From contig CAMCKZ010000015.1 in the NCBI GenBank assembly GCA_945875545.1, positions 1 to 47,729 of the forward strand: a stretch of 47,729 bases of DNA, written 5' to 3'. The position numbers and the translations under genes are program-made. The notes under the pieces were generated by a model that was not told where the DNA came from, did no database searches, and saw only the letters and a program-made list of their open reading frames with translations. Source of the DNA: Polyangium aurulentum (lineage in GTDB: Bacteria; Myxococcota_A; Polyangia; Polyangiales; Polyangiaceae). Below, piece by piece: positions 22,407 through 45,774 of this stretch (positions are counted from its first letter, which is position 1; every line of letters starts with the position of its first letter).

Positions 22407-23015
22407 ATGGCCGGCCTAAGCTTCGAGTGTGATTGGCGTTTCGCGATGAACGTGTCCGGGCGTCAGAAGGCTCGCGCCGGGTATCTTCTGTCGTGGTCCG
22501 GCGTCGGCGGCCTCAATCTCGCCGCCGATCTCACGGTGCGAAATCCGCATACTTCGACGGGTGCATCTTCGCTCACGGGCCCCACGGTGAAGTGCGTCGG
22601 GCTGATCGAAAAATTCTCTTTCGCCGGTGGCCAAGAAGACCCCATTCGCATCGTCGCGTACGTCACCACGGGCACAGCAGCCGCGCTCCGCGTGAAGCTT
22701 GCAAGCGGCATCACCACAACGAAGTTCACGTTTTCATTCGCGATTTGCGACTTTGATCTTGACGCACGAAAGTGGTTCGAAAGCGCTTTTGTGCAGGGTA
22801 AAGCGAAGGCCGCAGGCGTGGTCGATACAACCGACGGCATCCTTCAGCTGCTGATCGACGCAACCCCCACGCGCGTAAACCCCGACCTCGACCTCGTGCT
22901 TTGCCGCATGGAATTTCAGGCCGCAGCCTCCGACGCCACCTCGGTGAATTTGCAGTTTGCCACCGGCGCAGGCGAGCGAGTCGTCAAGGCTTGGGGCGGC
23001 GAAGACGGCGCGTAG
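22407..23015 (+). CDS. Hcp-like T6SS protein, copy 1
   Basis: 202 residues, ATG 22407. Beta-rich, no signal peptide. It is clearly paralogous to the protein at 25449-26087: VKCVGLIEKFSFAGGQEDP here against VNCVGIIESMNFGGGVGDP there, then the shared DFDLDARKWFESAF / NFDEEEKAWYEEAF segment. Because copy 2 sits in the hcp position right after tssC, I infer that both are tube-type (TssD) proteins. They are longer than classical Hcp (~160) and not obviously alike in sequence. Copy 1 could be a variant tube ring or effector carrier. A 12-bp inverted match (22346-22357 and 23143-23154) flanks the gene. Confidence 0.65.
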   Translation: MAGLSFECDWRFAMNVSGRQKARAGYLLSWSGVGGLNLAADLTVRNPHTSTGASSLTGPTVKCVGLIEKFSFAGGQEDPIRIVAYVTTGTAAALRVKLASGITTTKFTFSFAICDFDLDARKWFESAFVQGKAKAAGVVDTTDGILQLLIDATPTRVNPDLDLVLCRMEFQAAASDATSVNLQFATGAGERVVKAWGGEDGA

Positions 23016-25366: not shown

Positions 25367-25381
25367 CTTATTAGTGTGAGT

Positions 25382-25411
25382 GGGCGCCCCCGAACAGGGG
25401 GTGCCCTTTTT
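25382..25411 (+). terminator. Terminator-like hairpin between tssC and hcp-like 2
   Basis: GGGCGCCCCC (25382-25391), loop GAACA, GGGGGTGCCC (25397-25406) and a T5 run. The stem pairs completely, with one G-U. It sits 15 bp after tssC. Either a partial terminator or a 3'/5' end processing signal that would let hcp accumulate at a level different from tssBC. Confidence 0.8.
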
Positions 25412-25448
25412 CTTTCCTCGCAACACAATTTCTCGGAGACAACACAAA

Positions 25449-26087
25449 ATGGCAGCTCACAATTACCCGTGCGATTACAAATCTGGGTTCATCATGGACT
25501 CGTCGAAGAAGCAGCGCGTGGGTTACCTCACCGCCTTCACCGGCCTCGGCAAGCAGGTTCAGGCCCTCGACCAAGACATCCAAGTATGGTGCCCCGTCAC
25601 CGGCATTGCAGCGCCTAAATACGGCGGCATTGCCATCACCGAAGCCAAGGTCAACTGCGTCGGTATCATCGAGAGCATGAACTTCGGCGGCGGCGTCGGC
25701 GACCCCTTCTGCTTCAACGTTTACATCTCCGGCAACAACTCCAAGAAGTTGGCCGCGGCGATGCAGAACACCTTCGACAGCACCACGATCGACATCTGCT
25801 CCTGGTGGATTGCGAACTTCGACGAAGAAGAAAAAGCTTGGTACGAAGAGGCGTTCCCAGCAGACGACGCGATGAAGGGCATGCTCAACGCGGTTGGCGG
25901 CAAAGATCTCAAGATCGCCGTCGACACCACGGGCGTCAAAATCAGCCCCACCGTCGATGTCAAGGTCTTTAGCTGGTACTTCGAGATCGTTCCTGCAGCG
26001 AACTACATGTCCACGGTAAACTTTGCCGTCGGCGTGAAGAAGAACTCGGTCAAGTACTGGGGTCTCGATATCGCCGGCAACACCTGA
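25449..26087 (+). CDS. Hcp-like T6SS tube protein, copy 2
   Basis: 212 residues, ATG 25449. Located in the classical hcp position after tssBC and before tssK. Beta-rich, with MNFGGGVGDPFCFNVYIS and STVNFAVGVKKNSVKYWGLDI. No signal peptide. Paralogous to copy 1 (22407-23015), but longer than textbook Hcp; by position I infer it is the main tube subunit (TssD), while direct sequence resemblance to classical Hcp is weak by eye. It is framed by terminator-like hairpins on both sides, so its mRNA may be separately stable and abundant. Confidence 0.7.
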   Translation: MAAHNYPCDYKSGFIMDSSKKQRVGYLTAFTGLGKQVQALDQDIQVWCPVTGIAAPKYGGIAITEAKVNCVGIIESMNFGGGVGDPFCFNVYISGNNSKKLAAAMQNTFDSTTIDICSWWIANFDEEEKAWYEEAFPADDAMKGMLNAVGGKDLKIAVDTTGVKISPTVDVKVFSWYFEIVPAANYMSTVNFAVGVKKNSVKYWGLDIAGNT

Positions 26088-26244: not shown

Positions 26245-27480
26245 GTGAAGCGAGTTCCACGGCAGACGGCACGGGTTAACTGGCGCCTTGGGCAGCCATT
26301 GCTCCCAGACCACTTTCTTACGCAGGAGTCCGTACTTCGCCGTGAGATCCACGAGCGATTCGGCGGAAATTCCGTTCCAAACTGGGGGCTGGGGTCGCTG
26401 CGCCTCGACGGCTTTCAGCTGGTGCGCGGAATCGTGTCGATACAGGAACTTGTGCTCACCACCGAAGGCGGGGCTCTGATCGACGTGCCCGGCAACTGTT
26501 CGGCGCTGTCGTTCAACCTGGCCTCCGTTGGCGGAGCCCGGGTGTCGGTTTACTTGCAGCTTTTTGGTGCACCGATTGTCGTTGAGGGTGAAGGCCAAGA
26601 CCCCGTCGAGCGAGCGATTGTGCGCGCAGAGCTGGGGAGCGAGCCTTTTTCCGAGGGCGTCGTCGAGTCTTTTCACTTCGCGAACTTTGATCTCTCGCCC
26701 GAAGGTGCCTGGACGTTCGCCGCGGATTATTTGCCCCCGGCGCTGCACGTCACGGGAATTCCCCACTTCGACGACGTACTATCGCGCCTTGAGACCTTCT
26801 CGCGGTCGCTTTTGCGGGTCATCGAAGACGGCCTTCACGAAGAGTACCTCGCCGCCGAAGCGCAGTCTTCTGCGAGCGACGCGTACCGCGAATCTCTGCA
26901 TTTTGCCTCGTTTTTGGTCAACATGCGCGGCGACTATTTCCCGCATCCCTTCGAGCTGCACCGCGAGCTTCAGCGTCTTTGCACGCAGATGTCGATCTTT
27001 CGCGCGGTCGCCGTTCCTGAATTGCGGCCGTACCTCCACGACGACTCCGCGGCGTCGATTCTCCCGCTCGTCGAGCGCCTCGAAGACCTCTTGCAGATGC
27101 CGCGCACGCCCACGGCCTACGCGCCGTTTCGTCCGACCGGCGGCCTTCTCGTGTGCGAAATGCCCAAAGAAGTGCGCCGGGCCCGCCAAGTTTACCTGCT
27201 CATTCAGAAGCCCCACGTCTCGACGAAACTCGAGCTTCAGCGCACGAAGCTCGGGGCCAAGTCGCGCATTCAGCTTATTCACGAAAAGGCGCTGCGCGGC
27301 ATTGCCTTCGAGCCCCTTACCCGGCCGCCGTTCCATCACACGTTCACCTCCACTGTCGATTTTTTCACGGTCGGTTCCGGCGAAGAATGGGACCACGCCA
27401 TCCGTGACGCAGCCGTTGCCCTGTTCGACGAGCCAACCCTCGACGGCTGCCGGCTCTTCATTCACTGGCGCACAGACTGA
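26245..27480 (+). CDS. tssK: T6SS baseplate protein TssK
   Basis: 411 residues from GTG 26245 with GAGGTGAT just upstream. Family opening VNWRLGQPLLPDHFLTQESVLRREI (the conserved W..G..L.P.HF segment), then YLPPALHVTGIPHF and LRPYLHDDSAAS. TssK is the trimeric receptor-like adaptor that joins the baseplate to the TssJLM membrane complex; length fits (~440). Separated from tssM by 225 bp without a gene. Confidence 0.93.
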   Translation: MKRVPRQTARVNWRLGQPLLPDHFLTQESVLRREIHERFGGNSVPNWGLGSLRLDGFQLVRGIVSIQELVLTTEGGALIDVPGNCSALSFNLASVGGARVSVYLQLFGAPIVVEGEGQDPVERAIVRAELGSEPFSEGVVESFHFANFDLSPEGAWTFAADYLPPALHVTGIPHFDDVLSRLETFSRSLLRVIEDGLHEEYLAAEAQSSASDAYRESLHFASFLVNMRGDYFPHPFELHRELQRLCTQMSIFRAVAVPELRPYLHDDSAASILPLVERLEDLLQMPRTPTAYAPFRPTGGLLVCEMPKEVRRARQVYLLIQKPHVSTKLELQRTKLGAKSRIQLIHEKALRGIAFEPLTRPPFHHTFTSTVDFFTVGSGEEWDHAIRDAAVALFDEPTLDGCRLFIHWRTD

Positions 27481-31546: not shown

Positions 31547-31972
31547 ATGAAACACCTGTCTCAAATTGTTTGCGTGTTGTGCCTGTGGTTCGGTGCGATG
31601 ACGACCGGCTGCGCGACGACCACGCGCATTTCTGTGGAGTCGAAGAAGGACACCAACGGGGGCGAGCCGCTGTACATGGTCGTGCGCACGACGGACGGAA
31701 AGTCGTTTGTCAGCGAGCGTTACCAAGACGTCGCGGCCAAACTTTTCTCGAAAACAGACGACCCACAAACCATTCGCCAAGAGCCTATTTTTCCAGGGAA
31801 ACCCTTCACTCTTACCTTGGAAGAGGGCGACAAAAAAGACCTCGTGGTCTACTTCTTTTTCACCAAGCCGGGCACCAACTGGCGCGTGCCGCTGCGCAAG
31901 CCTCTGCCCGCTGAAGTGATCGTGGAGCTCGGCCCCAACGACATCCAAAAGGTTCAGGTTCGCAAGCGGTGA
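31547..31972 (+). CDS. tssJ: T6SS outer-membrane lipoprotein TssJ-like
   Basis: 141 residues from ATG 31547; the open frame upstream is an antisense artefact of tssM. Lipoprotein signal with Cys22 (MKHLSQIVCVLCLWFGAMTTGC). The mature part is a small beta sandwich: LYMVVRTTDGKSF, ERYQDVAAKLF and PGKPFTLTLEE match the TssJ pattern (neutral/positive loops and a PG...F block). It binds the periplasmic tip of TssM at the outer membrane. It starts 7 bp after tssM; its stop overlaps the GTG of the next gene (GTGA). Confidence 0.85.
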   Translation: MKHLSQIVCVLCLWFGAMTTGCATTTRISVESKKDTNGGEPLYMVVRTTDGKSFVSERYQDVAAKLFSKTDDPQTIRQEPIFPGKPFTLTLEEGDKKDLVVYFFFTKPGTNWRVPLRKPLPAEVIVELGPNDIQKVQVRKR

Positions 31973-33699
31973 CACCTCCCTCTGCATCGGCCCCGCCCCC
32001 GCAGCACCTTGCCATCGGCCCTTTGGTCGAGAGGCTTCGTGTGGCGCGTGGCGAGGCTGCGATCGTCGCGCCGTGGATCGCGACCTGCGCAGAGAGTCCC
32101 GACGCGATGGAACATGCGCTCCTGCGGCATCTCGGAGGTCGTCGCGGTCAGGCCCTGGAGAGCACCCCCGGGCGACTCGAAGCGTACCAAGATGTGGTCG
32201 TGGGCCAGCTCGCAAAACGCGGCTTTGCCCTGGTAGAACGCTCGCCAACCGCGAGCAAGGCCATGGGCTACACAGACCTCCACGCGCAGGCTTCGCGCCT
32301 CGCCGCAACGTGGGCTGACCGGGGTGTGGCCGCCGCATCAACGATCGCCATCGTGATGACCCCGGGCATCGATAGCACCGTGGCGCTCCTGGCAGCCCTG
32401 CGCCTCGGGGCGATCGTGAGCTTCATTCCCCCTCGGGGCCGCAGCTTTGTTGTTCATCGCCTCATCGTGCTGACCCCGGATTTTTTGGTGGCGTCGCCGG
32501 AACTGAACGCGCTTCTCGGCGTATTTTCTGAGCTCAATCTCCCGCTGACTCCGACGCGCAGTGCCATCGACGGTCCCCCGCGGGGTCACTCGTACGAGGG
32601 GAGCGAGAGCGTGTTTCGCCTGTTTTCTCCCTACGCGCGTGAGTCGTTTGATCTCTTCGACCTGACCGCCTCCGACGTGCTGTCGGCACTTTTGCGCGGC
32701 GCTTTTTTTGGTGTGGCCGCCGATACAAGCGACGTCGTCGCGTGGCCGGAGCTCGACGATCTCACCCACGAACCGCTCTTCACACTGGCCACAATGTTGT
32801 GCGGTGCAACACGTGTATTCTGCAAGACCGCAGACTTGCTGGTGCACCCCGAGTGGCTAGCGGACTTGAAGGTGACTCTGGTCGGCATTGGCCCTGAGCT
32901 TCGCGAATACTTTCTTCGCGTGGGGCCTGAGGCCGCCCCAACTATTCGAGGTTGGCTCCGCGACAGCACGGAGCCTATGGCGGTTGAACGCACGCACGCC
33001 CTGGAAAAACGCGTCACATCTGCGCGTTGGCGGCGCAGCGATCTCTTTCACGTGGCTGCCGCGGGCGGCTTGTTGTCTTTCGGAACTACGGGCCAAACGG
33101 CGTCCGAAAACTTGGCAATGCCGGGACCAGGCATGCGGTGGATTCTCCTCGACCTCGTGGGCACCGGAAAGCCCGCGGTGGGCACTGCGGGCCTTTTTTC
33201 GCGGCTCACAAACGATGGTCCCGACCGGGCGGCTTCCGGCTTTTCCTACGTCAAGCAAGGCGACGGGTGGGTGCTCGGCGGGGCCGCGGCTCCTTGGCGT
33301 TATGGCCGCACGTACCCGCGCTTCGAGGTCTGCAAGGCGGTGCGAAGTTTGCCTTTCGTCGAAGAGGTCGACGTCGTTTTGAGGGGCACGGGCGGCAACG
33401 ACGGCCTCGCCACAGTGGTCGTTTTCGTCGATCCCTCCCTGGGTTCTGTGAGTCAATACCGAGGAAAATGGCTCAGACTCATTCGCGAAACCATCGCCTA
33501 CGAGTTGGGTGAAATGTACCTCCCCGACGACATCGCGCTACTGCCGCTTCGGCCTCGCTACACGAACAAAGGGCAGTTCGATTCGGCGTGGCTTTCCAGT
33601 GAATGGTCGAGCGGCGCGCTGGACCAAAAAGCGGCCGATCCAATATTTGTGCTGTTTGCACGCATCGCCCGTATGTTTGCGCCCCCGAGAGGAGACTAG
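31969..33699 (+). CDS. Degenerate acyl-CoA synthetase / AMP-binding (ANL) fold protein in the T6SS operon
   Basis: 576 residues from GTG 31969, overlapping the tssJ stop by 4 bp. ANL fold signs: YTDLHAQASRLAATWADRGV (101-120) and LAALRLGAIVSFIPP (141-155) match the A1-A2 region of adenylate-forming enzymes; LLSFGTTGQ with PGPGMRWILLD (368-396) fits the A5-A6 region; WVLGGAAAPWRYG and YPRFEVCKAVRSLPFVEEVDVV (434-470) the C-domain; LLPLRPRYTNKGQFD (524-538) the A10 lysine region. The ATP P-loop (A3, S/T-S-G-T-T-G-x-P-K) is missing: the aligned stretch near 212-235 has no Gly-rich loop. The A5 Glu is Gly, and the hinge Asp/Arg of A8 is lost. It may therefore be a pseudoenzyme with a structural or ligand-sensing role in secretion. 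I know of no T6SS core part of this family. Confidence 0.8.
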   Translation: MTPPSASAPPPQHLAIGPLVERLRVARGEAAIVAPWIATCAESPDAMEHALLRHLGGRRGQALESTPGRLEAYQDVVVGQLAKRGFALVERSPTASKAMGYTDLHAQASRLAATWADRGVAAASTIAIVMTPGIDSTVALLAALRLGAIVSFIPPRGRSFVVHRLIVLTPDFLVASPELNALLGVFSELNLPLTPTRSAIDGPPRGHSYEGSESVFRLFSPYARESFDLFDLTASDVLSALLRGAFFGVAADTSDVVAWPELDDLTHEPLFTLATMLCGATRVFCKTADLLVHPEWLADLKVTLVGIGPELREYFLRVGPEAAPTIRGWLRDSTEPMAVERTHALEKRVTSARWRRSDLFHVAAAGGLLSFGTTGQTASENLAMPGPGMRWILLDLVGTGKPAVGTAGLFSRLTNDGPDRAASGFSYVKQGDGWVLGGAAAPWRYGRTYPRFEVCKAVRSLPFVEEVDVVLRGTGGNDGLATVVVFVDPSLGSVSQYRGKWLRLIRETIAYELGEMYLPDDIALLPLRPRYTNKGQFDSAWLSSEWSSGALDQKAADPIFVLFARIARMFAPPRGD

Positions 33700-34740: not shown

Positions 34741-35649
34741 ATGAACGACCGCAGCGAGAGCACGGATAGCGCGATTGCCAGGGGCATTTTGACGGGCGAA
34801 GTGAAGGCCCTGATTCAGGCGCGCGCGTATAGCTTTGATCCTGCGCGGCTCATCGATTTGTTGGCTTATTACGGGGTTCCCCGCGAAGACATCACGTTCG
34901 AGAGCAACCCGGATCGCGCCTCCGCTTCCACGATAGACAGCATTCGTTTCCAAGACGACGGCCGCGTTTTGGTGCGCGTGAACATGGGCCTCTTGGGCGA
35001 CACGGGCACACTTCCAAGCTACTTTCAACTCGTCGTCGAGCGAAGCGGAACCATCGAGAGTTTTCGAGATTTCGTTCGCTTCTTTGACGACCGACTCATC
35101 TCGAGCTTGATTCGGGCCACCTATCCTGAGCGCGATCCCACGCTCTTTGGGCACTGGCCGAGCGCCGTGGTGAACTTTCGCCGCCTTTCCGTCGTGGGTT
35201 CCGGCGCGCTTCTGCAATCGCTTCTTGCGAAGACGTTTCCCGAGCTCCGCGTTCACGTGCAACGCACGTCGATCTTTCGCTCGGATGCGGGCGCTTCCCT
35301 CGTCATGGGCGAAAATCTCCTCGACGGCGGGGGTCTGTTGGGCGAAGGGCGCATGGCCGATCCCAATGGTTTTGCGGTAACGCTTGTCGCCTTCGAGCCC
35401 ACCGCGAGCGGGGGTCGTCGGTGGCCTGGGCTCATTGCCCGGCGATTTGTGGAGCGCGTGGAGCCTGTGCTTGCGGCCCAGCGCCTCGCCTTCGATATGG
35501 AGCTTGTGGTTGTGGACCACGAAGAACGAGCCGGCCTTCAGAAAGCCGGATTCCTAGGCTATGAACGCATGGGCGGTGCCAGTGAGTCGGTTCACCGTGT
35601 TCGCCTTTACCGTGGGGTCGTGGGTCACGACGCCATTCAATGTACGTGA
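34741..35649 (+). CDS. tssG: T6SS baseplate protein TssG
   Basis: 302 residues, ATG 34741, 4 bp after tssA. The diagnostic GLLGDTGTLPSYFQLVVERSG block (family GLxGpnGpLP) and the following FRDFVRFFDDRLISSLIRA (family FlDlFhhR..sLfyRa) are present. TssG forms the wedge with TssE, TssF and TssK. Its usual partner tssF lies in the other arm (45781-47433), so the wedge genes are split between operons. Confidence 0.9.
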   Translation: MNDRSESTDSAIARGILTGEVKALIQARAYSFDPARLIDLLAYYGVPREDITFESNPDRASASTIDSIRFQDDGRVLVRVNMGLLGDTGTLPSYFQLVVERSGTIESFRDFVRFFDDRLISSLIRATYPERDPTLFGHWPSAVVNFRRLSVVGSGALLQSLLAKTFPELRVHVQRTSIFRSDAGASLVMGENLLDGGGLLGEGRMADPNGFAVTLVAFEPTASGGRRWPGLIARRFVERVEPVLAAQRLAFDMELVVVDHEERAGLQKAGFLGYERMGGASESVHRVRLYRGVVGHDAIQCT

Positions 35650-35656
35650 GGACTGC

Positions 35657-36016
35657 ATGTTTCTTCAGCGACACTTCGTAAAGGAAGAAGTCTCCGAGAT
35701 TGACGACATCGAGCAGAACCTCGCGTTCGCCCTGAAGTCCAAGCGCGGGGCAAGCCACGACTTCAACCAGATGGGGCTCCCGGACCTCTTTTTTCGCACG
35801 GCGGCCGAGGCCGTTTCCACGCTGAAAAGCGCCGTTCCCGCGCTGATTGAACGCCACGAGCCGCGGCTTGAATTCATCTCAGTGACCGACGACTACGACG
35901 ACAACGGGCGCCCGTATATCACGGTGAAATGCAGGCAACGCAGCACGGGTTACCGCGTCGATTTGGTCATCGATGGTAGCACGAGCATCGTCCAGTTCAA
36001 ACTGCGCGCGACATAA
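35657..36016 (+). CDS. tssE: T6SS baseplate wedge protein TssE (gp25-like)
   Basis: 119 residues from ATG 35657; the frame extends upstream to 35561 into tssG sequence. Pattern IDDIEQNLAFALKSKRG, DFNQMGLPDLF and FISVTDDYDDNGRPYITVKC fits the GPW/gp25 family (~130-170 residues; this one is short at the N-terminus). gp25-like proteins start sheath polymerisation at the baseplate. Its position between tssG and the vgrG-like gene supports the call. Confidence 0.85.
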   Translation: MFLQRHFVKEEVSEIDDIEQNLAFALKSKRGASHDFNQMGLPDLFFRTAAEAVSTLKSAVPALIERHEPRLEFISVTDDYDDNGRPYITVKCRQRSTGYRVDLVIDGSTSIVQFKLRAT

Positions 36017-36019
36017 TCC

Positions 36020-39000
36020 GTGGCCTACATCCCCGACCCCATTGGTTTCGACGAGATCGTCACGTGCTCGCTGTCGATCAAGGTCGGCACGGGCGAGGCC
36101 GTCGTTGTGCCCGCGGGCAACATCAAGCGCTTCAAAGTGGTGCTGAAAGACCACGGATTTGAAGCCAATTTTGACTTCTGGATCGTAAGCCAAGCCCTCT
36201 CGAGCGAAGACACGCTGCATCCCGAAATGAAGAAAGATGACCCCATCGAGGTCACCTTCACAATGGAGCCGCTGTATTCGCAGGCCGCCGCTGCACCGGT
36301 GATGACGTGCAAGGGTCTCGTCACCGTGCGTAGCGTGCTCGAACGCGCCTTCACCGACATCGACGGAGCACCGGTTTTGCACCGGCGTTACCTCGTGCAG
36401 GTCGTCGATGCCGGGGAAAAACTCTGGGGAGAACACCGGCCAACAAAGCTGTACGTCGACAAAAAACTCCAAGACGTCTTCGACGACAACAAGCCCGCGG
36501 GCATCGCGGTCACCTACGACTGGCCGCCGGTTACCGTCGTCATGCCGATTTTTGCGCTTGGTCTTGGGGCCAACGGAACAGCGTCTTTTCGCGATTTTCT
36601 TTGGTGGCAACTCGACACAAAAAACGGTGCCCTCGCCTACACGCTGGCAACCGGTGCTTACAAAATCGTGGCCACCAAAACCGTGGCGACGACGGCGATC
36701 GAGGTTGTGTTCGACGAGGTGGGCCTGGTCGAAACGCTCTTTACGTCGCCCGCGCGCGCAACCCCCACGGTGCTCAACGCCTCGACGCTGGCGGCCACCA
36801 AGAAGTCGACGATAACCAACGAAAAAAAGACAGTCGGGATCGACCAGGCCTTCTTGATCCGGTCTTCCGTCGCAGACGATCAAACGAAGCGCACGACCCT
36901 CGAGACGGCTCGCGCAACGATGCCGAAGGCCGAGATATCGATCCAGTTTCGAAAATACCCGACGATCGTGCTGCACCCAACCACGCTCGTAAAGTTTGGC
37001 GACGACTGGTCCGCCGATGCCTTTCAGAAGGCCGGCGAGTACCGCATTAGCGAGAGCTGTTACGAGGGAATTGCCAAGAAAACAGAAGCGACCGATAACA
37101 CCGACGAAGACACGAATGGGTACTCGCTGAACTTTCGAGTTCGCGCGGAGCTTAAGACAGATACAGTCATACGAAGGCCAGCCTACGTATGCCCAACGTA
37201 TCCCTTTGAGGTCGAAGCAAAAGTCGTCAGCACCCTCGGTGAAGACGACGAAGGCACGTATCAATCTGCGGCCGATGCCACGACGTCGATTGATTTTTAC
37301 ACCGTGTCGGTGAGCGTCTTCACGGACCTGAAGATCATCGTGGCCTACGAGCCCTTGTACATGCCGGGGCACTTCTACTTTCCGCTCTACAAAGATGAAC
37401 GTGTACTCCTCACGCTTTCGTTGAACGAAGCTCGCATCACCCGGTTTCTCGACTGGCGCCCGACCGCGCGCCTCGCTGCCGCGACCCTCGGCGACAACAT
37501 CGTTTGGGGGAAAAAAGAGGGCAACCAAACGACCCTCGGGCACACCTACGTGGCGGACAAACCGGAGCTCCAGCTCAAACGCACGAATGCCAAAGATCAT
37601 CAACGAATTCATGTACTTGAGGGCACGCTTTTCATCGAGGTGATGGAAGACAAAGAGGGCAAAGAAGAAAAGAAGGCCGCCAAGAAAGAAGAGAAAAAGG
37701 ACGACGCCGCCGCCAAGAAAGATACGGAAAAAAAGGCGGCAGATCCGGCTGCCGCGAAGGCCGACGCGGCACCTGCAGCGGCGGGTGGTGCAGCGGCGGC
37801 AGGTGGTGCAGCGGCGGCAGGTGGTGCAGCAGCGGCGGCAGGTGGTGCAGCAGCGGCGGCAGGTGGTGCGGCAGCGGCGGCAGGTGGTGCGGCAGCGGCG
37901 GCCGCTGGAATGGCCGCCAGCGCCGCGTCAAAGGCGGCCGCGGCTGCGGACATGGCCAAGTCCGCCACAGCGAAGCTCGACGCCGCCAAGGCCGCAGCAG
38001 GGGCCGCTGCGGCCAAGGTTACGGCGGCCCAAGCGGCCGTGGCCGGCGCTCAGGGCGCGATGCAGGCCCAGGCCGACGCCGCTAAGGCCAAGGTTGCCGA
38101 CGTCCAGGCGAAGATTGCGGGCGCTCAGGCCGAACTGCTGGCCAAAGCCGATGCCGCCAAGGCCCAGGTTGCCGACATCCAGGCGAAGGTGGCCGGCGCC
38201 CAGGCCGAGCTGCAGGCCAAGGCCGACGCCGCGATGGCCAAAGTTGCCGAGGTGCAGGCCAAAGCAGCCGCGGTCCAATCGCAGATCGCGGCGGTAAAAT
38301 CCGGGGGGCTGTCGCAAATCGCGGGGGCACAATCGGGGCTGCTGTCGCCTATCGCGGGGGCACAGTCGGGGCTGCTGTCGCAGCTGGCGGGTGCAAGTTT
38401 GGAGAGCCAGGCCGCGGGTTCGGTGGCCGCGGCCCGATCAAAATTGGCGGAGGCCCAAAGCCGCGCGAGCCTGATCAAACAGGGCGGAACCGATGCTTTG
38501 TCGCAGGCCAAAACGGCCGTCGACAGCGCGAAGGGAAAGGCCGCGGGGCTCGTGAGCGGAGCGGCTTCGGCGCAAGCAAAATCGCCGTCGGCCGCGGCCT
38601 CGTCCCAGGGCGTGGCGGCCGCCGGGGGCACAGTGAGCGAGGCCGAAGCTCTCGTTCGCGGTGCCGAAAAAGACGCGCAGCTGGCGGAGCTTTTTGCCGC
38701 CGCCGCCGCGACCCATCAGTCGTCGACGCAGCTTAACTGGACGATGAAAGTTGGAGATGCCGCGGCAAAAGCCAAGGAAAATCTAGCGACCGAACAAATG
38801 TCCGCCGTCGTCGCCAAGGCCCCACCCGCGTCCACCGGTTCCGGCGTGGCACCCGTTCCAGATGCGCACGAGACCGAACTTCGCTCCCGCGCAGCCGCCG
38901 TATCCACCGATGCCGCGGGCGTTCAAACCCGTGTCAAACAAACGAACACCGCGGGCACGTCGAGCGGAGATCGGCCCGGTCCCGAGCCTACACCCAAGAC

Positions 39001-39124
39001 CGTCCGGCGAAAGAGCGCGCCCCGAGCGCCCCGTCCCGAGGCAAGTCCCGAGGCAAGTCCTGAGGCACCGCCGCCGCCCCCGAGGCGCAGACCCCGCCGC
39101 AAGAGGAGCGCACCGAAACCGTAG
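36020..39124 (+). CDS. VgrG-like spike base protein with long Ala-rich coiled-coil extension
   Basis: 1034 residues from GTG 36020, 3 bp after tssE. Residues 1-~400 look like the gp27-type hub (IKRFKVVLKDHGFEANFDFWI; RRYLVQVVDAGEKLWG with KLYVDKKLQDVFDD; FLWWQLDTKNGALAYTL), and ~420-530 like an OB-type domain (LYMPGHFYFPLYKDERVLLTL). A Lys/Glu linker follows (~545-590), then seven Gly-Gly-(Ala)4-6 repeats (~590-630; nucleotide repeat about 37783-37905), Ala-rich heptads with a 25-residue repeat (about 38080-38290, ADAAKAQVADIQAKVAGAQ), a 10-residue repeat (IAGAQSGLLS) and a basic Pro/Arg tail (PPPPPRRRPRRKRSAPKP). The beta-helix needle of normal VgrG was not found. The call as TssI is by domain pattern and position. 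Confidence 0.7.
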   Translation: MAYIPDPIGFDEIVTCSLSIKVGTGEAVVVPAGNIKRFKVVLKDHGFEANFDFWIVSQALSSEDTLHPEMKKDDPIEVTFTMEPLYSQAAAAPVMTCKGLVTVRSVLERAFTDIDGAPVLHRRYLVQVVDAGEKLWGEHRPTKLYVDKKLQDVFDDNKPAGIAVTYDWPPVTVVMPIFALGLGANGTASFRDFLWWQLDTKNGALAYTLATGAYKIVATKTVATTAIEVVFDEVGLVETLFTSPARATPTVLNASTLAATKKSTITNEKKTVGIDQAFLIRSSVADDQTKRTTLETARATMPKAEISIQFRKYPTIVLHPTTLVKFGDDWSADAFQKAGEYRISESCYEGIAKKTEATDNTDEDTNGYSLNFRVRAELKTDTVIRRPAYVCPTYPFEVEAKVVSTLGEDDEGTYQSAADATTSIDFYTVSVSVFTDLKIIVAYEPLYMPGHFYFPLYKDERVLLTLSLNEARITRFLDWRPTARLAAATLGDNIVWGKKEGNQTTLGHTYVADKPELQLKRTNAKDHQRIHVLEGTLFIEVMEDKEGKEEKKAAKKEEKKDDAAAKKDTEKKAADPAAAKADAAPAAAGGAAAAGGAAAAGGAAAAAGGAAAAAGGAAAAAGGAAAAAAGMAASAASKAAAAADMAKSATAKLDAAKAAAGAAAAKVTAAQAAVAGAQGAMQAQADAAKAKVADVQAKIAGAQAELLAKADAAKAQVADIQAKVAGAQAELQAKADAAMAKVAEVQAKAAAVQSQIAAVKSGGLSQIAGAQSGLLSPIAGAQSGLLSQLAGASLESQAAGSVAAARSKLAEAQSRASLIKQGGTDALSQAKTAVDSAKGKAAGLVSGAASAQAKSPSAAASSQGVAAAGGTVSEAEALVRGAEKDAQLAELFAAAAATHQSSTQLNWTMKVGDAAAKAKENLATEQMSAVVAKAPPASTGSGVAPVPDAHETELRSRAAAVSTDAAGVQTRVKQTNTAGTSSGDRPGPEPTPKTVRRKSAPRAPRPEASPEASPEAPPPPPRRRPRRKRSAPKP

Positions 39125-39158: not shown

Positions 39159-39310
39159 GCGCATACGCCCAAGACTGCATGGCTGTAGAACACATGCTTG
39201 CAATCCGCGTGCGTGTAATATGCAACGTATTACCTCGCGCATACGCCAAGGACTGCATGGCTGTAGAATACATGCGTGCAGTATGCAACGTATTACGTCG
39301 CGCATACACC
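39159..39310. repeat. Direct repeats with palindromic TGYA-N3-TRCA boxes
   Basis: Unit 1 (39159-39236) and unit 2 (39237-39299) share GCGCATACGCC, a CTGCATGGCTGTAGAA core and GCAACGTATTAC; a third start is seen at 39300-39310. Unit 1 has about 15 extra bases. The units carry palindromes at 39214-39224 (TGTAATATGCA), 39262-39272 (TGTAGAATACA) and 39277-39287 (TGCAGTATGCA), plus a near copy at 39184. Together they fill the gap before the gene at 39357 and may be a tandem protein-binding site. Confidence 0.85.
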
Positions 39311-39356
39311 GTCGCACGCGTTCCTTCTGCGGTGCCCCAACGTCGTCGGGCCACCT

Positions 39357-40730
39357 GTGAGCGCCCCCACGATCACCGACCTGCGGGTCCACGTGCAGGG
39401 GCAAATTGATGCGCAGGTTTCCCGTGCCGGCGACAAGCGCGCGGCCGGCGTGATTCTTGCGCTCTTGGACGACACGGGCGTCATCGATGTGGCTGCACTG
39501 CTGGAAATCGCCCACGAACAGTTGGCACTGAGTCTCATCGCTGCACCGGGAGGCAAGGACACCGCGCTGCTGGCGGGGCTTGCGTTCATGGCGGGCGAAG
39601 ATGCAACGGCCGCGAGCGAGGCCCTCCACCGCGTGGTCGGCGAGGACCTATCGCACGAACTTCGGTCAGCGGTCGGCGACGCCGTGACACGCCTTGACGG
39701 GGTGCTTCAGGCCGTCGGTCACTTGCAGCGAACGCTTCGCGACGACGCTCTTATGAACCCCGCCCTCGGGCCGGCGCTGCTCCAGATCAAAGCGGGCGGA
39801 GAGTCGCTGCGGGCAGGCGCAATCTTGGCGATATCCCACGGCTGCAACGTGCCGTTGGCGACGCGAATCGTTTCCTTTCTTGAACTCGCGCCGCCTGCAT
39901 TTCCCCTCGGTCCCACCCTCGCAGACCAGCTGCTTCAGCAGGCCGCGGCCGCGTGGAAATCGATGTATTTTGCACACGCCAAAATGCTCCTCGATCGGGT
40001 GCTCGGGCGCGACGTGCTCCACGAAGAGCGTGATCGCGTGGTGCGGCTTCTGGGCCTCATGGAGTCCCGCGTCATCCCCCCACTCTCGTGGGCCCGAGAG
40101 GCGCGCCGCGAACTTTTTGTGGTCACGATTGCCAAGCTCGCTGCCGTGCCCGTGACCGACGCCCGGCAGTTGCTCGACCTCTTTCATCGCTGCAGCCCGG
40201 TGGGCGTGGCGTCCCGTGATCGGTCCGAACTTTTGGGCCTCCAGGCCACGTGGAACGCCTGCGATCCAAGGGTCGTGGAGCTGGCCGACGAGGCCCTCGA
40301 AGACCTCGACGCCCGTAAATACGCAGTACTTGCGGCGAGGTATGGAGTTTCCGTTGCGTTTCTAAAAAGTGCCCGCGCGCAGCTTGAACGCTTTGAGTCG
40401 AGCCCCGTCAGTCGCCTCGTCCTCGGGCTTGATCCTGAATCGACGGACCTCGTCTTTGAGCGCAAGGGTTCGGAACTTGTGCTCACGGGAGGCATGATGG
40501 GCGCGCTGCCCGCCGAGCCCACCGACGAACTGTTCGCCGTCGCCCAAGCCATCCTCGACAAGAGCGGGGAATTCATGCGCTACGGGTCCGCGCACTTGGT
40601 GCCCATCGCCCTCGCCGAGGCCGCGCACGCCGCCGAACTCACGCAAGGGCAAGTGCTCCAGGTGACCGAAAATGTTCTCGTGGAAACGCCTTGGGGAATC
40701 ATGGCGCTCAATCATTTCATCAGGCAATAA
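39357..40730 (+). CDS. All-helical protein of unknown function in the T6SS cluster
   Basis: 457 residues from GTG 39357 (VSAPTITDLRVHVQG); an ATG at 39276 starts inside the repeat element and is not favoured. No clear ribosome site. Sequence is Ala/Leu-rich, nearly all helix, with no signal peptide or membrane segment. Features are DTGVIDVAALLEIAHEQLALSL, LLDRVLGRDVLHEERDRVVRLLG and FERKGSELVLTGGMMG. The pattern of short helices resembles HEAT/TPR-type repeats, though no motif is convincing. It lies downstream of the vgrG-like gene, a usual place for effectors, adaptors or immunity proteins, but I cannot assign a role. Confidence 0.72.
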   Translation: MSAPTITDLRVHVQGQIDAQVSRAGDKRAAGVILALLDDTGVIDVAALLEIAHEQLALSLIAAPGGKDTALLAGLAFMAGEDATAASEALHRVVGEDLSHELRSAVGDAVTRLDGVLQAVGHLQRTLRDDALMNPALGPALLQIKAGGESLRAGAILAISHGCNVPLATRIVSFLELAPPAFPLGPTLADQLLQQAAAAWKSMYFAHAKMLLDRVLGRDVLHEERDRVVRLLGLMESRVIPPLSWAREARRELFVVTIAKLAAVPVTDARQLLDLFHRCSPVGVASRDRSELLGLQATWNACDPRVVELADEALEDLDARKYAVLAARYGVSVAFLKSARAQLERFESSPVSRLVLGLDPESTDLVFERKGSELVLTGGMMGALPAEPTDELFAVAQAILDKSGEFMRYGSAHLVPIALAEAAHAAELTQGQVLQVTENVLVETPWGIMALNHFIRQ

Positions 40731-40748: not shown

Positions 40749-41810
40749 ATGAGCACACAGCATTCGCCGCCAGCGACCCCGCGGCACCTCCTTCCTATTC
40801 GCCTCTTTTTGGTGACCGCGGCCCTCGCGGCAACATCGGCAACGGCGTTCGTGGCGTGCACCACCGGCGACGGGCGAACGGCGGCGGACGCGGGCTACGG
40901 CGATGATGCAGGCGACCTCGCCGCGGACGCCGGGGCGTTTGACGCCCAAGGATGCCGAGACAACGTCTCGCTGTGCAAGGCCGCGAATCTCGTGTGCGGA
41001 ACGGCGCTGCTGTTCGACGACGGGTGCGGGAGAGACCGCGAGGTGAACTGCGGTCACTGCATTCCGGGGTCGGCACCTGTAGGGATGAGCGTCATGGCGG
41101 GGTCGACGGTATTTCGAATGGGGAACGCCCTGCCAACGGGGTCGCCCACCGAAAAGCCACAGCATGTGGAGACCATCGGTGGATTTTGGATCGACATCCA
41201 CGAGGTGTCGACCTCGGCCTACACCGCGTGCGTCGCGGCGAAAGCGTGCACGCCTGCCCGCACCGGCGGCACGTGCAATTACGGCATTCGAACGCGCTCG
41301 ACCCACCCCATCAACTGCGTCGACTGGTACCAAGCGAATGCATACTGCAGCTACCGCGGGCTTCGTCTCCCCACCGAGCCCGAGTGGGAATACGCCGCCC
41401 GTGGAGGCGTGGCTGGCCGCGCGTACCCGTGGGGAAACCAGTCGCCGGTGGGCCTCCGCTCCGACGCGGGAGATCTGCCCGTTTGCTGGAGCGGGAACCC
41501 GGACGCGGGCGCGCTCAAGTCGACATGCCCGACGGACCGCGGCGCCGAAAATTTGGACAAAAGTTCCACCGGGGTTTTTGATCTCGCCGCGAACGTTCGC
41601 GAGTGGACCCTGGACGGCTGGTCGCCCAACTACGCTTCGCCGCGCGCGTCAGTTTTTCGCGTGCAGCGCGGGGGCGGATGGTTTGCCGACGTCACAGCCG
41701 AGAGCTTGAACGGCCTTCATCGCAGCTCAAATCTCCCGACCGGCACCGCCGCAGACGTGGGATTTCGCTGCCTTTTGCCCCTGGTTGCGCGCGACGGCGG
41801 AACACTTTAA
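40749..41810 (+). CDS. FGE-sulfatase (SUMF1) domain lipoprotein
   Basis: 353 residues, ATG 40749. A signal with a likely lipobox at Cys37 (ATAFVAC), then an Asp/Ala/Gly-rich linker and a Cys-rich segment (residues ~69-100). The FGE-sulfatase domain starts near 110: HVETIGGFWIDIHEVSTSAY, NCVDWYQANAYCSYRGLRLPTEPEWEYAARGG, AYPWGN, FDLAANVREWT, RVQRGGGWF and VGFRCLLP. Such secreted domains often act as binding or regulatory modules, not true formylglycine enzymes. In the Pseudomonas T6SS, TagR, a protein with this domain, helps control threonine phosphorylation (established knowledge); a similar periplasmic signalling role here is inference. Last gene of the plus arm. Confidence 0.87.
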   Translation: MSTQHSPPATPRHLLPIRLFLVTAALAATSATAFVACTTGDGRTAADAGYGDDAGDLAADAGAFDAQGCRDNVSLCKAANLVCGTALLFDDGCGRDREVNCGHCIPGSAPVGMSVMAGSTVFRMGNALPTGSPTEKPQHVETIGGFWIDIHEVSTSAYTACVAAKACTPARTGGTCNYGIRTRSTHPINCVDWYQANAYCSYRGLRLPTEPEWEYAARGGVAGRAYPWGNQSPVGLRSDAGDLPVCWSGNPDAGALKSTCPTDRGAENLDKSSTGVFDLAANVREWTLDGWSPNYASPRASVFRVQRGGGWFADVTAESLNGLHRSSNLPTGTAADVGFRCLLPLVARDGGTL

Positions 41811-41852: not shown

Positions 41853-44600
41853 TCACTGCTCGAAACCGAGCGTGAAGAGGATCGTTCGTCGCGGTTGCGG
41901 GAGCATGGAGCTGTCCATGCCGAGGCTCCCGGCATAGCCACCGTTCGGAAGAAATAGTCCCGGCCCGATGCCCGCATCGGCTCGCCCAATTCCGGGTTGC
42001 GCGTACTGCGTATCGAGAATGTTGGTCGTGCGAAGGCCGTAGCTCAAACCCTGAAAGGGCAGATTTCGAAGCACAATGTTCGCATCAAGCGTGCAGTATG
42101 CAGGCAGTTCCGCGACAGGATTTGTGGGGATGGTGGTGCGGGCACCGATGCATCGCCCATGAACCGAGGCCGAAAAGGGGCCGTCGGAGTAAGTGGCACC
42201 GATCAGCGTTTTACGCAGGGCGATGTCGCCGAGCGAGCGCTCCATTCCGGCACCGGCTGCATCGGTACCCGACTCGCGGGCCATGAAAATGTGCGAATAG
42301 ACTGCATATCCTCTGACCGGGCCCGCAGCGAAACGCACGGAGAGGTCGCTCGAGAGAACTTGACGGCTCGTCAGTTTGGCGTCGTCGAAGGTGGACCGCG
42401 GATCGCTCACTTGCTGGAAGTAGCCGCCCGCGTGAACCGACAGGGCCTCGCCGTTTGTATCGAGGTGAACCTCCATCGTGTGGCTCTTTTCTGCGAGCAG
42501 CGTGCGCCCAGCCACCACCGTGTTCGCCGTGTTGCCGAACCGCGAGTTCATGCGCTCAAGACTGCTCGGGTCGAAGGAGGCGCGCGAATACAAAAACTTG
42601 ATTATGTAAGGCGGAAACTCCCCCACGTATGCGAACCGGCCGTTGGGGGAAATGGAGGCACCGGGCAGCGTGATGCCGTCCAGGCGCACGCCCGCGTGAA
42701 CAAAATGGCGGCCCGAAAACTCGTAGCGCGCGCTGACGTAGCTGCCGAATTGATCCGGGTGCATCACGCTGCGGGCATCTTGGCCGAGCGAGCCTGCACC
42801 GGGCTCGCCCCCGAGCGCGCACCCGATGTATTCAAGATTTTGCCCCGCGGGAATGGCCGAGGGTTGCGGCGGAACGGTTGCCGCTTCGTCGCGCGCGGGA
42901 ACCGCCAGCGGTGACGTGATGCAATCGGTTGACGACGGCGACGGGTGGCGAATGGGGAAGCCGACGGCGTTCGACGTGGCGTAATCCGTGGCGATTCGCA
43001 GCATGGAATAGCGGAGGCCCGCGGAGAACGAGAGCTCGTCTTTTCGCAAAAAGAGACCCCGCGCCAAGACCGTTGTCAGGTCGGTCTGCAAACTCGTGGC
43101 GCTCGACTCTTGCCCCATTTGATAGAAGACCGGGCCCTCGTTGGGGTTTCGCGAGAAGTCGTATGACGGCGAAGCTTGGCCGTCGCGGCGCAGCAAAACG
43201 GACGAATTCGGCCCCAGGCTGCTTGCCCGGTAACGAATGATGCTCTCGGCCTTGGCGTCGCGCGACAAGTGCAACGTGTGCCGCAAATAGCCAGCCTTCT
43301 CGTCTTGAAAAATAGAAGGTGTAGTCTGCACGCGATCGCCCGGCGACGACAGCCCCTGCCCTGTTTCTCGGGCGTAGTACTGAACGCCTACTTCGAGGTC
43401 TTTGAACTCGAGTCGCGCATCGATGGAGCGCTTGTTGTCGGGCGATTCAAAGCGCCCTCCGATCGTTGGGTAGGCATCAAAAAGGCGTCGCCCCCAGAGA
43501 CGCGGATCGGAATAGTACGTGTCGCCGAGGTAGCTGTATCCCTCACTCGTTCCCCGATCGAGCACGGCGGCTTCCATGCGCGCCGCCGCACGAAAAACGA
43601 AGTCGTGGCCGATGTACGCGGCGGTGGCGTCGATGATTTTTGTTGCCAAAGCGCGGAACGGCATGTTCGCGCTGGAACCGCCGTAAGACATGCGCGCATC
43701 GACATGCGTGCCGTAGTCGCCGAGAAGCTGGCGCTTTCCGTAGGTGCGCGTCGTGATGTTGATGACCGCTCCGACCGCGTTCGGACCCCAGTAGATCGGC
43801 GACGGCCCGTAAGAGACCTCGACGCGCTCAACGTTCGTGATCGGGATCGCCGCAAGGGTGTGCGCATCGCCGGAAAAAAGATTGTTCAGCGGGAGGCCAT
43901 CGACCGCGACGATGTACGGAGCCGTAGCGCTCCCCGTGCGAACACCCCGGAACGATGCGTTGGCGTAACTCGGCCCGAAGGATCGCGAGACGTCGACACC
44001 GGGCAGGTCGTCGAGGAGTTCGCTGAGGTTCGCGTAGCCCCGCGCTCGCAGCGTCGCGGCAGAAAAAACGAGCGTCCACGCGGGCGCTGTTTTGACGCTC
44101 TCTTGGCGATTGACCGCGCCCGACAACATCGATGTGCTAACGTCTTCGGCGCCGACCGTTGTGGCCCCGGTTTCGTCTTCGTCTTCGCCGCCGTGCACCG
44201 AACGCCGAACGCCCGTGGGCAGCGTATTCGGCAACCCGTTCTCATCGGGCTTTCCCAAATCGGTGCGAGTGGCACCCTCGTCGCCGTTGCTCGACTCGGT
44301 GCTCACCGCCGTGCCCGCGCCGTCGGTTGTGGGGCTCATCGTGGCCGCAGGAGGCGCAGGGGCCGCGGTAGCCGCTGGTGCCGCCGCTGGGGGTGCTTTG
44401 CCCGCGGGGGCCGCGCCAGGGAGGCCAGGGAGGCCAGGAAGCCCAGTAACCTTGGGGAGGCTGGGTATGGCGGGCAGCTTGGGCATCGCGGGAAGGCCCG
44501 GAATCGCGGGCCCGGCGGCGGGCGGTGGGGCCGCGTGCGCGAGGGTCGTAACGAGCGCGATGGATGCGCAGCCACCGTAATACATGCATCGCAAGCTCAT
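41853..44600 (-). CDS. TonB-dependent outer-membrane receptor
   Basis: 915 residues. ATG 44600 overlaps the stop of the upstream gene (ATGA); an internal ATG at 44585 lies closer to the signal peptide. Signal sequence (YYGGCASIALVTTLAHAA), then a Pro/Gly/Ala-rich linker with collagen-like GLPGLPGLPG, then the plug domain (LVFSAATLRARGYANLSELLDDLPGV; SFRGVRTGSATAPYIVAVDGLPLNN; VERVEVSYGPSPIYWGPNAVGAVINITT) and a long beta barrel ending in RRTILFTLGFEQ with the terminal aromatic/hydrophobic end expected for barrel assembly. No obvious TonB box. It imports a siderophore, vitamin or glycan, or acts as a surface receptor. Placement in the T6SS minus arm is unusual. Confidence 0.93.
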   Translation of the reverse strand: MSLRCMYYGGCASIALVTTLAHAAPPPAAGPAIPGLPAMPKLPAIPSLPKVTGLPGLPGLPGAAPAGKAPPAAAPAATAAPAPPAATMSPTTDGAGTAVSTESSNGDEGATRTDLGKPDENGLPNTLPTGVRRSVHGGEDEDETGATTVGAEDVSTSMLSGAVNRQESVKTAPAWTLVFSAATLRARGYANLSELLDDLPGVDVSRSFGPSYANASFRGVRTGSATAPYIVAVDGLPLNNLFSGDAHTLAAIPITNVERVEVSYGPSPIYWGPNAVGAVINITTRTYGKRQLLGDYGTHVDARMSYGGSSANMPFRALATKIIDATAAYIGHDFVFRAAARMEAAVLDRGTSEGYSYLGDTYYSDPRLWGRRLFDAYPTIGGRFESPDNKRSIDARLEFKDLEVGVQYYARETGQGLSSPGDRVQTTPSIFQDEKAGYLRHTLHLSRDAKAESIIRYRASSLGPNSSVLLRRDGQASPSYDFSRNPNEGPVFYQMGQESSATSLQTDLTTVLARGLFLRKDELSFSAGLRYSMLRIATDYATSNAVGFPIRHPSPSSTDCITSPLAVPARDEAATVPPQPSAIPAGQNLEYIGCALGGEPGAGSLGQDARSVMHPDQFGSYVSARYEFSGRHFVHAGVRLDGITLPGASISPNGRFAYVGEFPPYIIKFLYSRASFDPSSLERMNSRFGNTANTVVAGRTLLAEKSHTMEVHLDTNGEALSVHAGGYFQQVSDPRSTFDDAKLTSRQVLSSDLSVRFAAGPVRGYAVYSHIFMARESGTDAAGAGMERSLGDIALRKTLIGATYSDGPFSASVHGRCIGARTTIPTNPVAELPAYCTLDANIVLRNLPFQGLSYGLRTTNILDTQYAQPGIGRADAGIGPGLFLPNGGYAGSLGMDSSMLPQPRRTILFTLGFEQ

Positions 44601-45046
44601 TGAGGAAATCCGTAGCGAAGAAGGACGGCGACGACGTCTTCGAAGTCGCCAATGGCACCGAGGAGCTGGCCTGCGAGGGCGATATCGACCGGGCTCGTAG
44701 GGTGAGAAGGGAGGCGTGCGCGCTCCGAGAAATAGTCGCAGTTCGGCGCGTATTGAAAGAGGTCGAGGGGGCGCCCCTCGTCGTCAAGTTTCGGAGCTCC
44801 GGCGATCGCGTCGATCATGTATTCTACACGCGCTGCCATGGCCTCGATCTGGACGACTTCGGCGGGCAGGGCCAAGAACGCGCGCTGGCGAATGGCATGC
44901 AACATGATGCGCGCGGTGGCACCTGGATCGCTTGCTGGCAGCACCGCGGCGAACACTTCGGAGCCCGGATGCTTGTCGAGCTCCGTGGCCTTAACCCAGC
45001 GACTTTTCAGGCGCCTGGGGTCGAGGTCTTCGTCGATGAGCTTCAT
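44597..45046 (-). CDS. Small protein of unknown function between tssL and the TonB receptor
   Basis: 149 residues from ATG 45046, whose ATGA overlaps the tssL stop; the open frame above is the tssL tail. It opens MKLIDEDLDPRRLKSRWVKATELDK and is mainly helical, with LPASDPGATARIMLHAIRQRAFLALPAEVVQIE and a DFEDVVAVLLRYGFPQ end. No signal peptide. I do not recognise a family. The overlaps on both sides imply cotranslation with TssL and the TonB receptor, so a role with the secretion system is likely. Confidence 0.72.
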   Translation of the reverse strand: MKLIDEDLDPRRLKSRWVKATELDKHPGSEVFAAVLPASDPGATARIMLHAIRQRAFLALPAEVVQIEAMAARVEYMIDAIAGAPKLDDEGRPLDLFQYAPNCDYFSERARLPSHPTSPVDIALAGQLLGAIGDFEDVVAVLLRYGFPQ

Positions 45047-45774
45047 GAGGGCGATGACCACCAGAGCGCGAGAAGTGTTCCAAGAACGGCGCACGCAGCC
45101 GCCGCGTAGTAACGCCACGGCGATCCAGAAAGCTCGATCGTGGGGCGCTCACCGACGGACTCTTGCTGCACCGCGGGGGTCGGAATGCGGAGGCGAAGCC
45201 GGCCCCGCACGTCGTCGAGGCGCATGGGGCTACCGGCGTACATGCCCTTGAAGCCGTCGTTGAGGCAGAAATAGAACGACTCAAAAACGACCGGGTGCGT
45301 ATCGGCTTTGACCAGGAGTTGGTCGAGATACGTGAAAAAAAGCTCACCGCCGTCGGTCACGTCGTAGAGTTCGCTCTGCAGCGGCTCCCACCGGGTGACC
45401 TGCGCGCGCGCCACGGTGCGCACGAGCTCGTCGGAGTACACGACGATCGGAAAGAGTGTAAAGTACACCTCTCGTTCCGTCAGTACGTCGGCGAGGGTTG
45501 AGCGCAGCCCCAACAGCTGTTTTCGTATTTCAGAGCGCAGCCCCACGAGATCGGCCCCTTGCGGGTAGGCCTCTCCGATGGCTGGATCGTCGGCCAACTT
45601 TTCAACGGTCGGGAACCGCGGCTCGATGGCCTCGGGTACGGCCGTGGTGTCGAAGGGATCGCGGCTGCGGCGCGCGTGGGCGAGCTCGGCGGCATACGCG
45701 CGCAGGCACTCGGATTCGATGGCCGCGAAAGCGCGTTCGATGGGAAACCACAGGCGATTGGCTGGCGTCGGCAT
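45043..45774 (-). CDS. tssL: T6SS inner-membrane protein TssL (DotU family)
   Basis: 243 residues. DotU features: FPIVVYSDELVRT, WEPLQSELYDVTDGGELFFTYLDQLL, FYFCLNDGFKGMYAG, then RGRLRLRIP and a single C-terminal membrane helix (YYAAAACAVLGTLLALWW) that anchors it with the bulk in the cytoplasm. No OmpA-like peptidoglycan domain. It sits 6 bp after tssF. It forms the cytoplasmic hook of the TssJLM complex. The tssM and tssJ partners are in the other arm. Confidence 0.93.
   Translation of the reverse strand: MPTPANRLWFPIERAFAAIESECLRAYAAELAHARRSRDPFDTTAVPEAIEPRFPTVEKLADDPAIGEAYPQGADLVGLRSEIRKQLLGLRSTLADVLTEREVYFTLFPIVVYSDELVRTVARAQVTRWEPLQSELYDVTDGGELFFTYLDQLLVKADTHPVVFESFYFCLNDGFKGMYAGSPMRLDDVRGRLRLRIPTPAVQQESVGERPTIELSGSPWRYYAAAACAVLGTLLALWWSSPS

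What the first reader, a model, noticed from the sequence alone, without database searches (positions are those of the whole stretch)
41853..45774. TonB-dependent receptor translationally coupled to tssL
tssL, a 149-residue unknown and a 915-residue TonB-dependent receptor are joined by two ATGA overlaps, implying cotranslation. T6SS loci that serve metal acquisition secrete metal-binding proteins that dock on TonB receptors (established for some Pseudomonas, Burkholderia and Yersinia systems). A receptor hard-wired to the structural genes suggests this system may exchange a nutrient-binding effector, or need a receptor for self or prey recognition.
Basis: partly seen in the sequence, partly recalled or inferred. 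Interest (0 to 1): 0.7.

Follow-up and report, generated by a model that had tools for sequence, protein, structure and literature searches.

The report
Nutrient-type surface receptor inside T6SS cluster
In a small-genome myxobacterium, the gene for a TonB-dependent surface receptor is built into the operon of a type VI secretion machine, and the same receptor family turns up in the corresponding gene cluster of two other myxobacterial lineages, which suggests that the injection machine and an uptake receptor work together.

Summary
tssL (45043-45774), a 149-aa gene (44597-45046) and a 915-aa TonB-dependent receptor (41853-44600) lie on the minus strand, joined by two ATGA overlaps. All 3 genomes held of the genus show the same order and both overlaps.

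The 149-aa protein is not receptor-specific: it is a divergent member of a small family that follows tssL in related clusters. There the next gene is a lytic transglycosylase, not a receptor, in 4 of 4 loci long enough to show it.

The receptor-T6SS link goes beyond the overlap. The receptor clade occurs in 6 of 144 genomes, all among the 9 that carry this T6SS type. It lies inside the T6SS cluster in three lineages, in different arrangements. Receptor-less clusters of this type exist, for example in a complete Sorangium genome, so it is accessory, not core.

Most likely it is a co-expressed uptake receptor for something the T6SS makes available (secreted carrier or prey contents). Ligand unknown; no secreted partner found. 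New variant of a known kind.

The parts
41853..44600 (-). TonB-dependent receptor, 915 aa: hydrophobic N-terminus (by eye a signal peptide), Pro/Ala-rich spacer to about residue 90, plug, barrel; genus-specific insertion with Cys560 and Cys594
   Evidence: Pfam PF07715 and PF00593; orthologues aligned in A3; Cys positions
44597..45046 (-). 149-aa member of a small protein family that follows tssL in related clusters; ATGA overlap with both neighbours
   Evidence: alignment A2, profile comparison A7 vs A8 probability 96.6, E 6.9e-10; junctions
45043..45774 (-). tssL (DotU)
   Evidence: PF09850, 60 bits
45781..47433 (-). tssF (baseplate)
   Evidence: PF05947, 51.2 bits
47439..47729 (-). 3' part of a spike-like gene (gp5-like beta-repeat), cut by the contig end; 218 aa in G002
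   Evidence: ORF; position and repeats, inference; no Pfam family over cut-off
36020..39124 (+). VgrG/gp27-like core of about 540 aa with a long Ala/Lys-rich tail; other arm of the cluster
   Evidence: homologues in related clusters; tail printed; VgrG name is inference (no Pfam hit)
35561..36016 (+). tssE-like (GPW_gp25)
   Evidence: PF04965, 24.7 bits, just under cut-off 27.2
34741..35649 (+). tssG
   Evidence: PF06996, 27.2 bits
31463..31972 (+). IglE-type lipoprotein (TssJ counterpart)
   Evidence: PF22361, 68.9 bits
27706..31539 (+). tssM (IcmF)
   Evidence: PF14331 33.3 bits, TIGR03348 below cut-off
26245..27480 (+). tssK
   Evidence: PF05936, 105.7 bits
23888..25366 (+). tssC (VipB sheath)
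   Evidence: PF05943, 354.7 bits
23260..23859 (+). tssB (VipA sheath)
   Evidence: PF05591, 126.8 bits

Best explanation
The receptor is an accessory uptake part of an IglE-type T6SS in some Polyangiales. It is translated with the machine's genes as the last gene of the spike-tssF-tssL-U149 operon, so receptor and machine appear on the cell together. It then imports, with TonB energy, a ligand that T6SS activity makes available: either a T6SS-exported ligand carrier or small molecules (iron, cobalamin or heme type) freed from attacked cells. Shown: gene order, overlaps, conservation in the genus, co-occurrence and repeated linkage, TonB domains in the genome. Inferred: co-expression, import function, ligand source.
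For: Conserved coupled order in 3 of 3 genomes of the genus. The receptor clade is in 6 of 144 genomes, all within the 9 with this tssL type; by genus 4 of 4 inside 7 of 80 (2e-5 if genera were independent). It sits inside the cluster in three lineages: after tssL-U149; 43 bp after tssE in G027; divergent from the spike-tssF-tssL-U block in G096. Flanking control genes (sigma-54-like, FGE-like) match none of 21 T6SS-region loci from other genera, while the receptor matches 2 of the 21. The reading frame is open, with no stops, in all matches. TonB_C domains are present in G000 (4 matches, 3 over cut-off). T6SS cargo delivering metals to such receptors is published (passages).
Against: No secreted ligand carrier was found. 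G077, G011 and nine distant clusters have no such receptor. In G045 neither of two receptor copies is seen near T6SS genes, although one is cut by a contig end. In the genus the TonB-box region is altered relative to other lineages. No expression data. Thresholds for the 9 and the 6 were set after seeing the scores.
Confidence: 0.45

Rival explanations
1. Passenger: an ordinary siderophore- or cofactor-type receptor that sits at the edge of the T6SS cluster by history. A single inversion of the spike-tssF-tssL-U block fused it to the operon end; it shares a promoter but not a task.
For: Inverting that block of G096 would give the window's order exactly, so the ATGA junction may be a by-product. 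The receptor lies at an arm end in all three arrangements. Receptor-less clusters exist. G045 copies look unlinked.
Against: Presence is nested inside T6SS-positive genomes (6 of 6); the overlap has been kept through 32-45% receptor divergence in the genus; other flanking genes are not shared.
Confidence: 0.27
2. Recognition or sensing: the receptor binds a surface or soluble cue of prey or kin and gates the T6SS, or works as a transducer without import.
For: Genus-specific insertion with two conserved Cys, probably a surface loop; altered TonB-box region in the genus; a histidine kinase gene lies at the far end of the other arm.
Against: No signalling domain was seen in the receptor, and no FecR/ECF sigma pair among the genes scanned.
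Confidence: 0.12
3. Entry portal for a T6SS-released toxin that acts through the receptor on kin, with immunity elsewhere (as in the TepC-TdsR case).
For: TepC of Yersinia enters through a TonB-dependent receptor (passages).
Against: No toxin-immunity pair was recognised in the genes scanned.
Confidence: 0.06
4. Structural part of the machine: an outer-membrane element that replaces the lost lytic transglycosylase or the TssJ anchor.
For: In the genus the receptor holds the slot that a lytic transglycosylase holds elsewhere, and none of that type is matched on the contig.
Against: An IglE-type TssJ counterpart is present; G027 has both the transglycosylase and the receptor.
Confidence: 0.04

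Closest known systems
T6SS metallophore-receptor pairs (TseM-MnoT, TseZ-HmuR, Azu-OprC, TseF-FptA, TepC-TdsR, TeoL-CubA/CstR)
   Same: T6SS plus TonB-dependent receptor; proposed uptake function
   Different: Here the receptor gene is the last gene of the machine's own operon. In the passages read, TdsR, CubA and CstR were found by pull-down, and TdsR (YPK_0815) is numbered far from the T6SS-1 effector TepC (YPK_0405). No carrier protein is known here
Francisella pathogenicity island T6SS (IglE-DotU-PdpB)
   Same: IglE-type lipoprotein instead of TssJ; no ClpV match on this contig (in Francisella ClpB, coded outside the island, does that job; passages)
   Different: Clear TssK, TssF, TssG and sheath families; receptor present; relative G027 does have a Clp ATPase in the cluster
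BtuB/CirA-like TonB-dependent receptors
   Same: Plug region resembles colicin I receptor and BtuB (PDB profile hits, residues 154-310 only)
   Different: Barrel not assignable to any named family; all NCBIfam hits far below cut-off
T6SS-associated orthologous groups with TonB-dependent receptors in Serratia (PMC12165300)
   Same: Co-occurrence of such receptors with a T6SS
   Different: In the passage read it is a statistical association, not a gene in the machine's operon

Membership tests
TonB-dependent receptor | Plug domain | tested here: met
   PF07715 60.2 bits, cut-off 23.9
TonB-dependent receptor | C-terminal beta-barrel | tested here: met
   PF00593 28.8 bits, cut-off 27, marginal; structure model failed, pLDDT 32.1
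TonB-dependent receptor | TonB box before the plug | tested here: inconclusive
   VVSASR-like stretch in other lineages, changed in the genus; judged by eye from recalled motifs
TonB-dependent receptor | TonB protein in the genome | tested here: met
   PF03544 in G000, 4 matches, 3 over cut-off; C132 match in a 248-aa frame
Type VI secretion system | TssB, TssC, TssK, TssL, TssF, TssG, TssM | tested here: met
   Pfam hits over cut-off
Type VI secretion system | TssE | tested here: inconclusive
   gp25 24.7 bits, below cut-off 27.2
Type VI secretion system | TssJ or IglE lipoprotein | tested here: met
   PF22361 68.9 bits
Type VI secretion system | Hcp, VgrG, ClpV | tested here: inconclusive
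   Two related small genes (22407, 25380) and spike-like genes by position; no Pfam hit; ClpV of G027 has no tblastn match in the window at E 0.01
T6SS metallophore-receptor pair | T6SS-secreted ligand-binding protein | not tested
   No candidate recognised; no secretion data
T6SS metallophore-receptor pair | Receptor binds the secreted protein and uptake depends on both | not testable with these tools
   Needs experiments

The most novel reading that the evidence does not exclude
A closed loop coded in one operon: this T6SS exports (or frees from prey) a ligand carrier that its own co-translated receptor re-imports, making the machine a dedicated feeding device of these small-genome myxobacteria, with the receptor having taken the operon slot of the wall-cutting enzyme.
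Probability: 0.18. Interest if true: 0.75.

Novelty: new variant of a known kind. Interest (0 to 1): 0.5.

Why it matters
Known T6SS-receptor partnerships were mostly found by biochemistry. A receptor fixed in the machine's operon, and recurring in three lineages in different arrangements, gives genomic evidence that uptake can be part of a T6SS's job and names a concrete receptor to test. It also shows that the small gene after tssL is a T6SS family of its own.

Tried and rejected
Structure of the receptor: AlphaFold2 on 4 sequences gave mean pLDDT 32.1 and was not used. U149 model 69.1; Foldseek against PDB found nothing at E <= 0.001, and a sequence-profile search gave only weak hits, the best to coiled-coil nucleoporins. 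So U149's fold and role remain unknown.

Sigma-54 promoters for the sigma-54-like gene in the cluster: 6 sites with up to 1 mismatch in the window against a shuffle mean of 1.65, 1 of 100 shuffles reaching 6; none in a convincing place before the operon, so not used. Sigma-70 and terminator scans: nothing clearly above shuffles. Rfam: one tRNA only.

Idea that the receptor replaces the outer-membrane anchor: rejected because an IglE-type gene is present. Idea that the 149-aa protein is a receptor partner: rejected because its relatives follow tssL without a receptor. Idea that the receptor is core: rejected.

Literature: searches listed no paper that I could see describing a TonB-dependent receptor gene inside a T6SS operon (listings read; passages read only in the papers cited, and in PMC2827408, PMC2699552 and PMC10781749, which did not help). 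The library holds open-licence papers only, so this is not proof of absence.

Dropped rows: G017 (one 86-residue match, E 1.9e-8) and G248 (43.7 bits) were left out of the receptor clade; 36 of the 45 genomes with tssL at E <= 0.001 were treated as other T6SS types because they scored E > 1e-20. These cut-offs were chosen after seeing the lists. The G045:C185 fragment was ignored.
Full report
What is there. The window is a whole contig (C15, 47,729 bases) of a 3.5-Mb, 97.5% complete genome. The minus-strand run at its right end is a spike-like gene (cut by the contig end), tssF, tssL, a 149-aa gene and a 915-aa TonB-dependent receptor, with gaps of 5, 6, -4 and -4 bases. Both overlaps are ATGA. 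The plus-strand arm to the left holds tssB, tssC, tssK, tssM, an IglE-type lipoprotein, tssG, a tssE-like gene and a VgrG-like gene. It is a genuine but divergent T6SS; the two arms converge at the receptor.

Is it more than chance. ATGA overlaps are common (4 of 25 same-strand pairs by my gene choices). The two other genomes of the genus that are held, G002 and G001, keep the complete order and both overlaps. Receptor identity to them is 67-68% and 55-56%, against 83% and 79% for tssL, 71% and 66% for tssF, and 66% and 54-55% for the 149-aa protein.

The 149-aa protein. In six clusters of other genera a small gene of 112-186 codons follows tssL. Its start (..D..RLR.NWD..) and end (..DLEDLLEV..) match the window's protein, and profile comparison of the three genus sequences with those six gives probability 96.6 and E 6.9e-10. 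In 4 of the 4 clusters whose contig runs far enough (G027, G045, G011, G077), the next gene is a lytic transglycosylase (SLT); in G023 and G096 the contig ends too soon. In E. coli the transglycosylase MltE serves T6SS assembly (passage in PMC5841429). So in the window's genus the receptor holds the slot of a wall-cutting enzyme, and no tblastn match to that enzyme is on the contig. The rest of the genome was not searched for it.

Receptor and T6SS in relatives. A search of 144 genomes (own genome included) with tssL gave 45 matches at E <= 0.001, of which 9 score E < 1e-20. The C-terminal third of the receptor, which avoids the common plug, matched 7 of 144 at E <= 1e-6; one (G017) is a single 86-residue match that I set aside. 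The remaining 6 (G000, G001, G002, G027, G045, G096) are all among the 9. By genus this is 4 of 4 inside 7 of 80, probability 2e-5 under independence, which related genera do not quite satisfy. In a draw of 377 genomes of the phylum the receptor profile matched 8, five of them at over 400 bits, all five with a strong tssL match; the weaker three (G424, G182, G248) had no tssL match at E <= 1e-10, and 15 of the 20 genomes with a tssL match lack the receptor profile. The 20-kb and 15-kb regions around the G424 and G182 receptors hold no match to the window's T6SS genes. Thus the wider receptor family is not tied to T6SS, but this subclade is.

Linkage. In G027 the receptor follows tssG-tssE on the same strand with a 43-base gap. 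In G096 one of two copies lies between the tssE/VgrG side and the spike-tssF-tssL-U block, transcribed away from that block. Inverting that block would produce the window's order exactly; this is inference. In G045 two copies were found, one starting 93 bases from a contig end and one with no T6SS match in 14.5 kb. So 5 of 6 receptor-bearing genomes, 3 of 4 genera, have a copy in the cluster. The receptor tree separates the lineages and pairs the copies within G045 and within G096, which fits vertical descent with local duplication. As a control, the sigma-54-like and FGE-like genes beside the receptor in the window match none of 21 T6SS-region loci from other genera, while the receptor matches 2 of 21; a plug profile over the same 21 loci found only those two. 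The 21 loci include several pieces of one cluster.

Against. G077 (a complete Sorangium genome by its contig) and G011 have the cluster, and 21 and 23 plug proteins elsewhere, but no receptor of this clade. Nine more distant cluster loci (L082-L085, L133-L137) have none. The receptor is therefore optional.

How it may work. The receptor has plug and barrel and the genome has TonB domains and 8 plug proteins in all. Its plug resembles CirA and BtuB, but the barrel fits no named family, so the ligand cannot be named. In the genus it has an insertion of several dozen residues with two conserved Cys (C560, C594), probably a surface loop, and an altered TonB-box region. Most likely the operon puts an uptake receptor on the cell whenever the machine is made. 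Published T6SS systems secrete metal binders that dock on such receptors (review passages PMC8602904; PMC10833071; PMC8776902), and in Serratia such receptors co-occur with a T6SS (passage PMC12165300). I found no carrier in the genes scanned, and many myxobacteria feed on other bacteria (recalled; abstracts agree), so import of freed prey compounds is as likely as re-import of a carrier.

Novelty. The receptor family and the idea of T6SS-assisted uptake are known. A receptor as the last gene of a T6SS operon, with the clade restricted to genomes carrying that T6SS, was not seen in searches. I rate it a new variant of a known kind.

Noticed in passing
window 39276-40730 +: Sigma-54-like gene (core-binding and DNA-binding domains) inside the T6SS cluster, conserved next to the FGE-like gene in the genus only; may be a dedicated sigma factor.
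   Followed up: partly
window 40749-41810 +: FGE-sulfatase-domain protein with a lipoprotein-like start, convergent with the receptor; kept in G001 and G002.
   Followed up: no
window 36020-39124 +: VgrG-like core with an Ala/Lys-rich low-complexity tail of nearly 500 aa; G002 has a similar but hardly alignable tail; the G096 homologue ends at 540 aa.
   Followed up: partly
window 22407-23015 and 25380-26087 +: Two related small genes flank tssB-tssC (27% identical) in this and related clusters; possibly two Hcp-type tube proteins, no Pfam hit.
   Followed up: no
window 31969-33699 +: Conserved 576-aa T6SS-cluster gene with only a short AMP-binding match but homologues in related clusters, including Desulfobacteraceae.
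   Followed up: no
G000:C32:8181-9050: TonB_C domain and plug domain in one open frame (932 aa), a pattern repeated in G011, G077, G096 and others: apparent TonB-receptor fusions.
   Followed up: no
L088 12646-14370 +: Gene after an unlinked receptor copy in G045 joins a PH-like N-terminus (by eye) to a weak protein-kinase-like match.
   Followed up: no
L037 7157-7882 -: 241-aa lipoprotein-like gene between the lytic transglycosylase and the Clp ATPase in G027, no Pfam hit.
   Followed up: no
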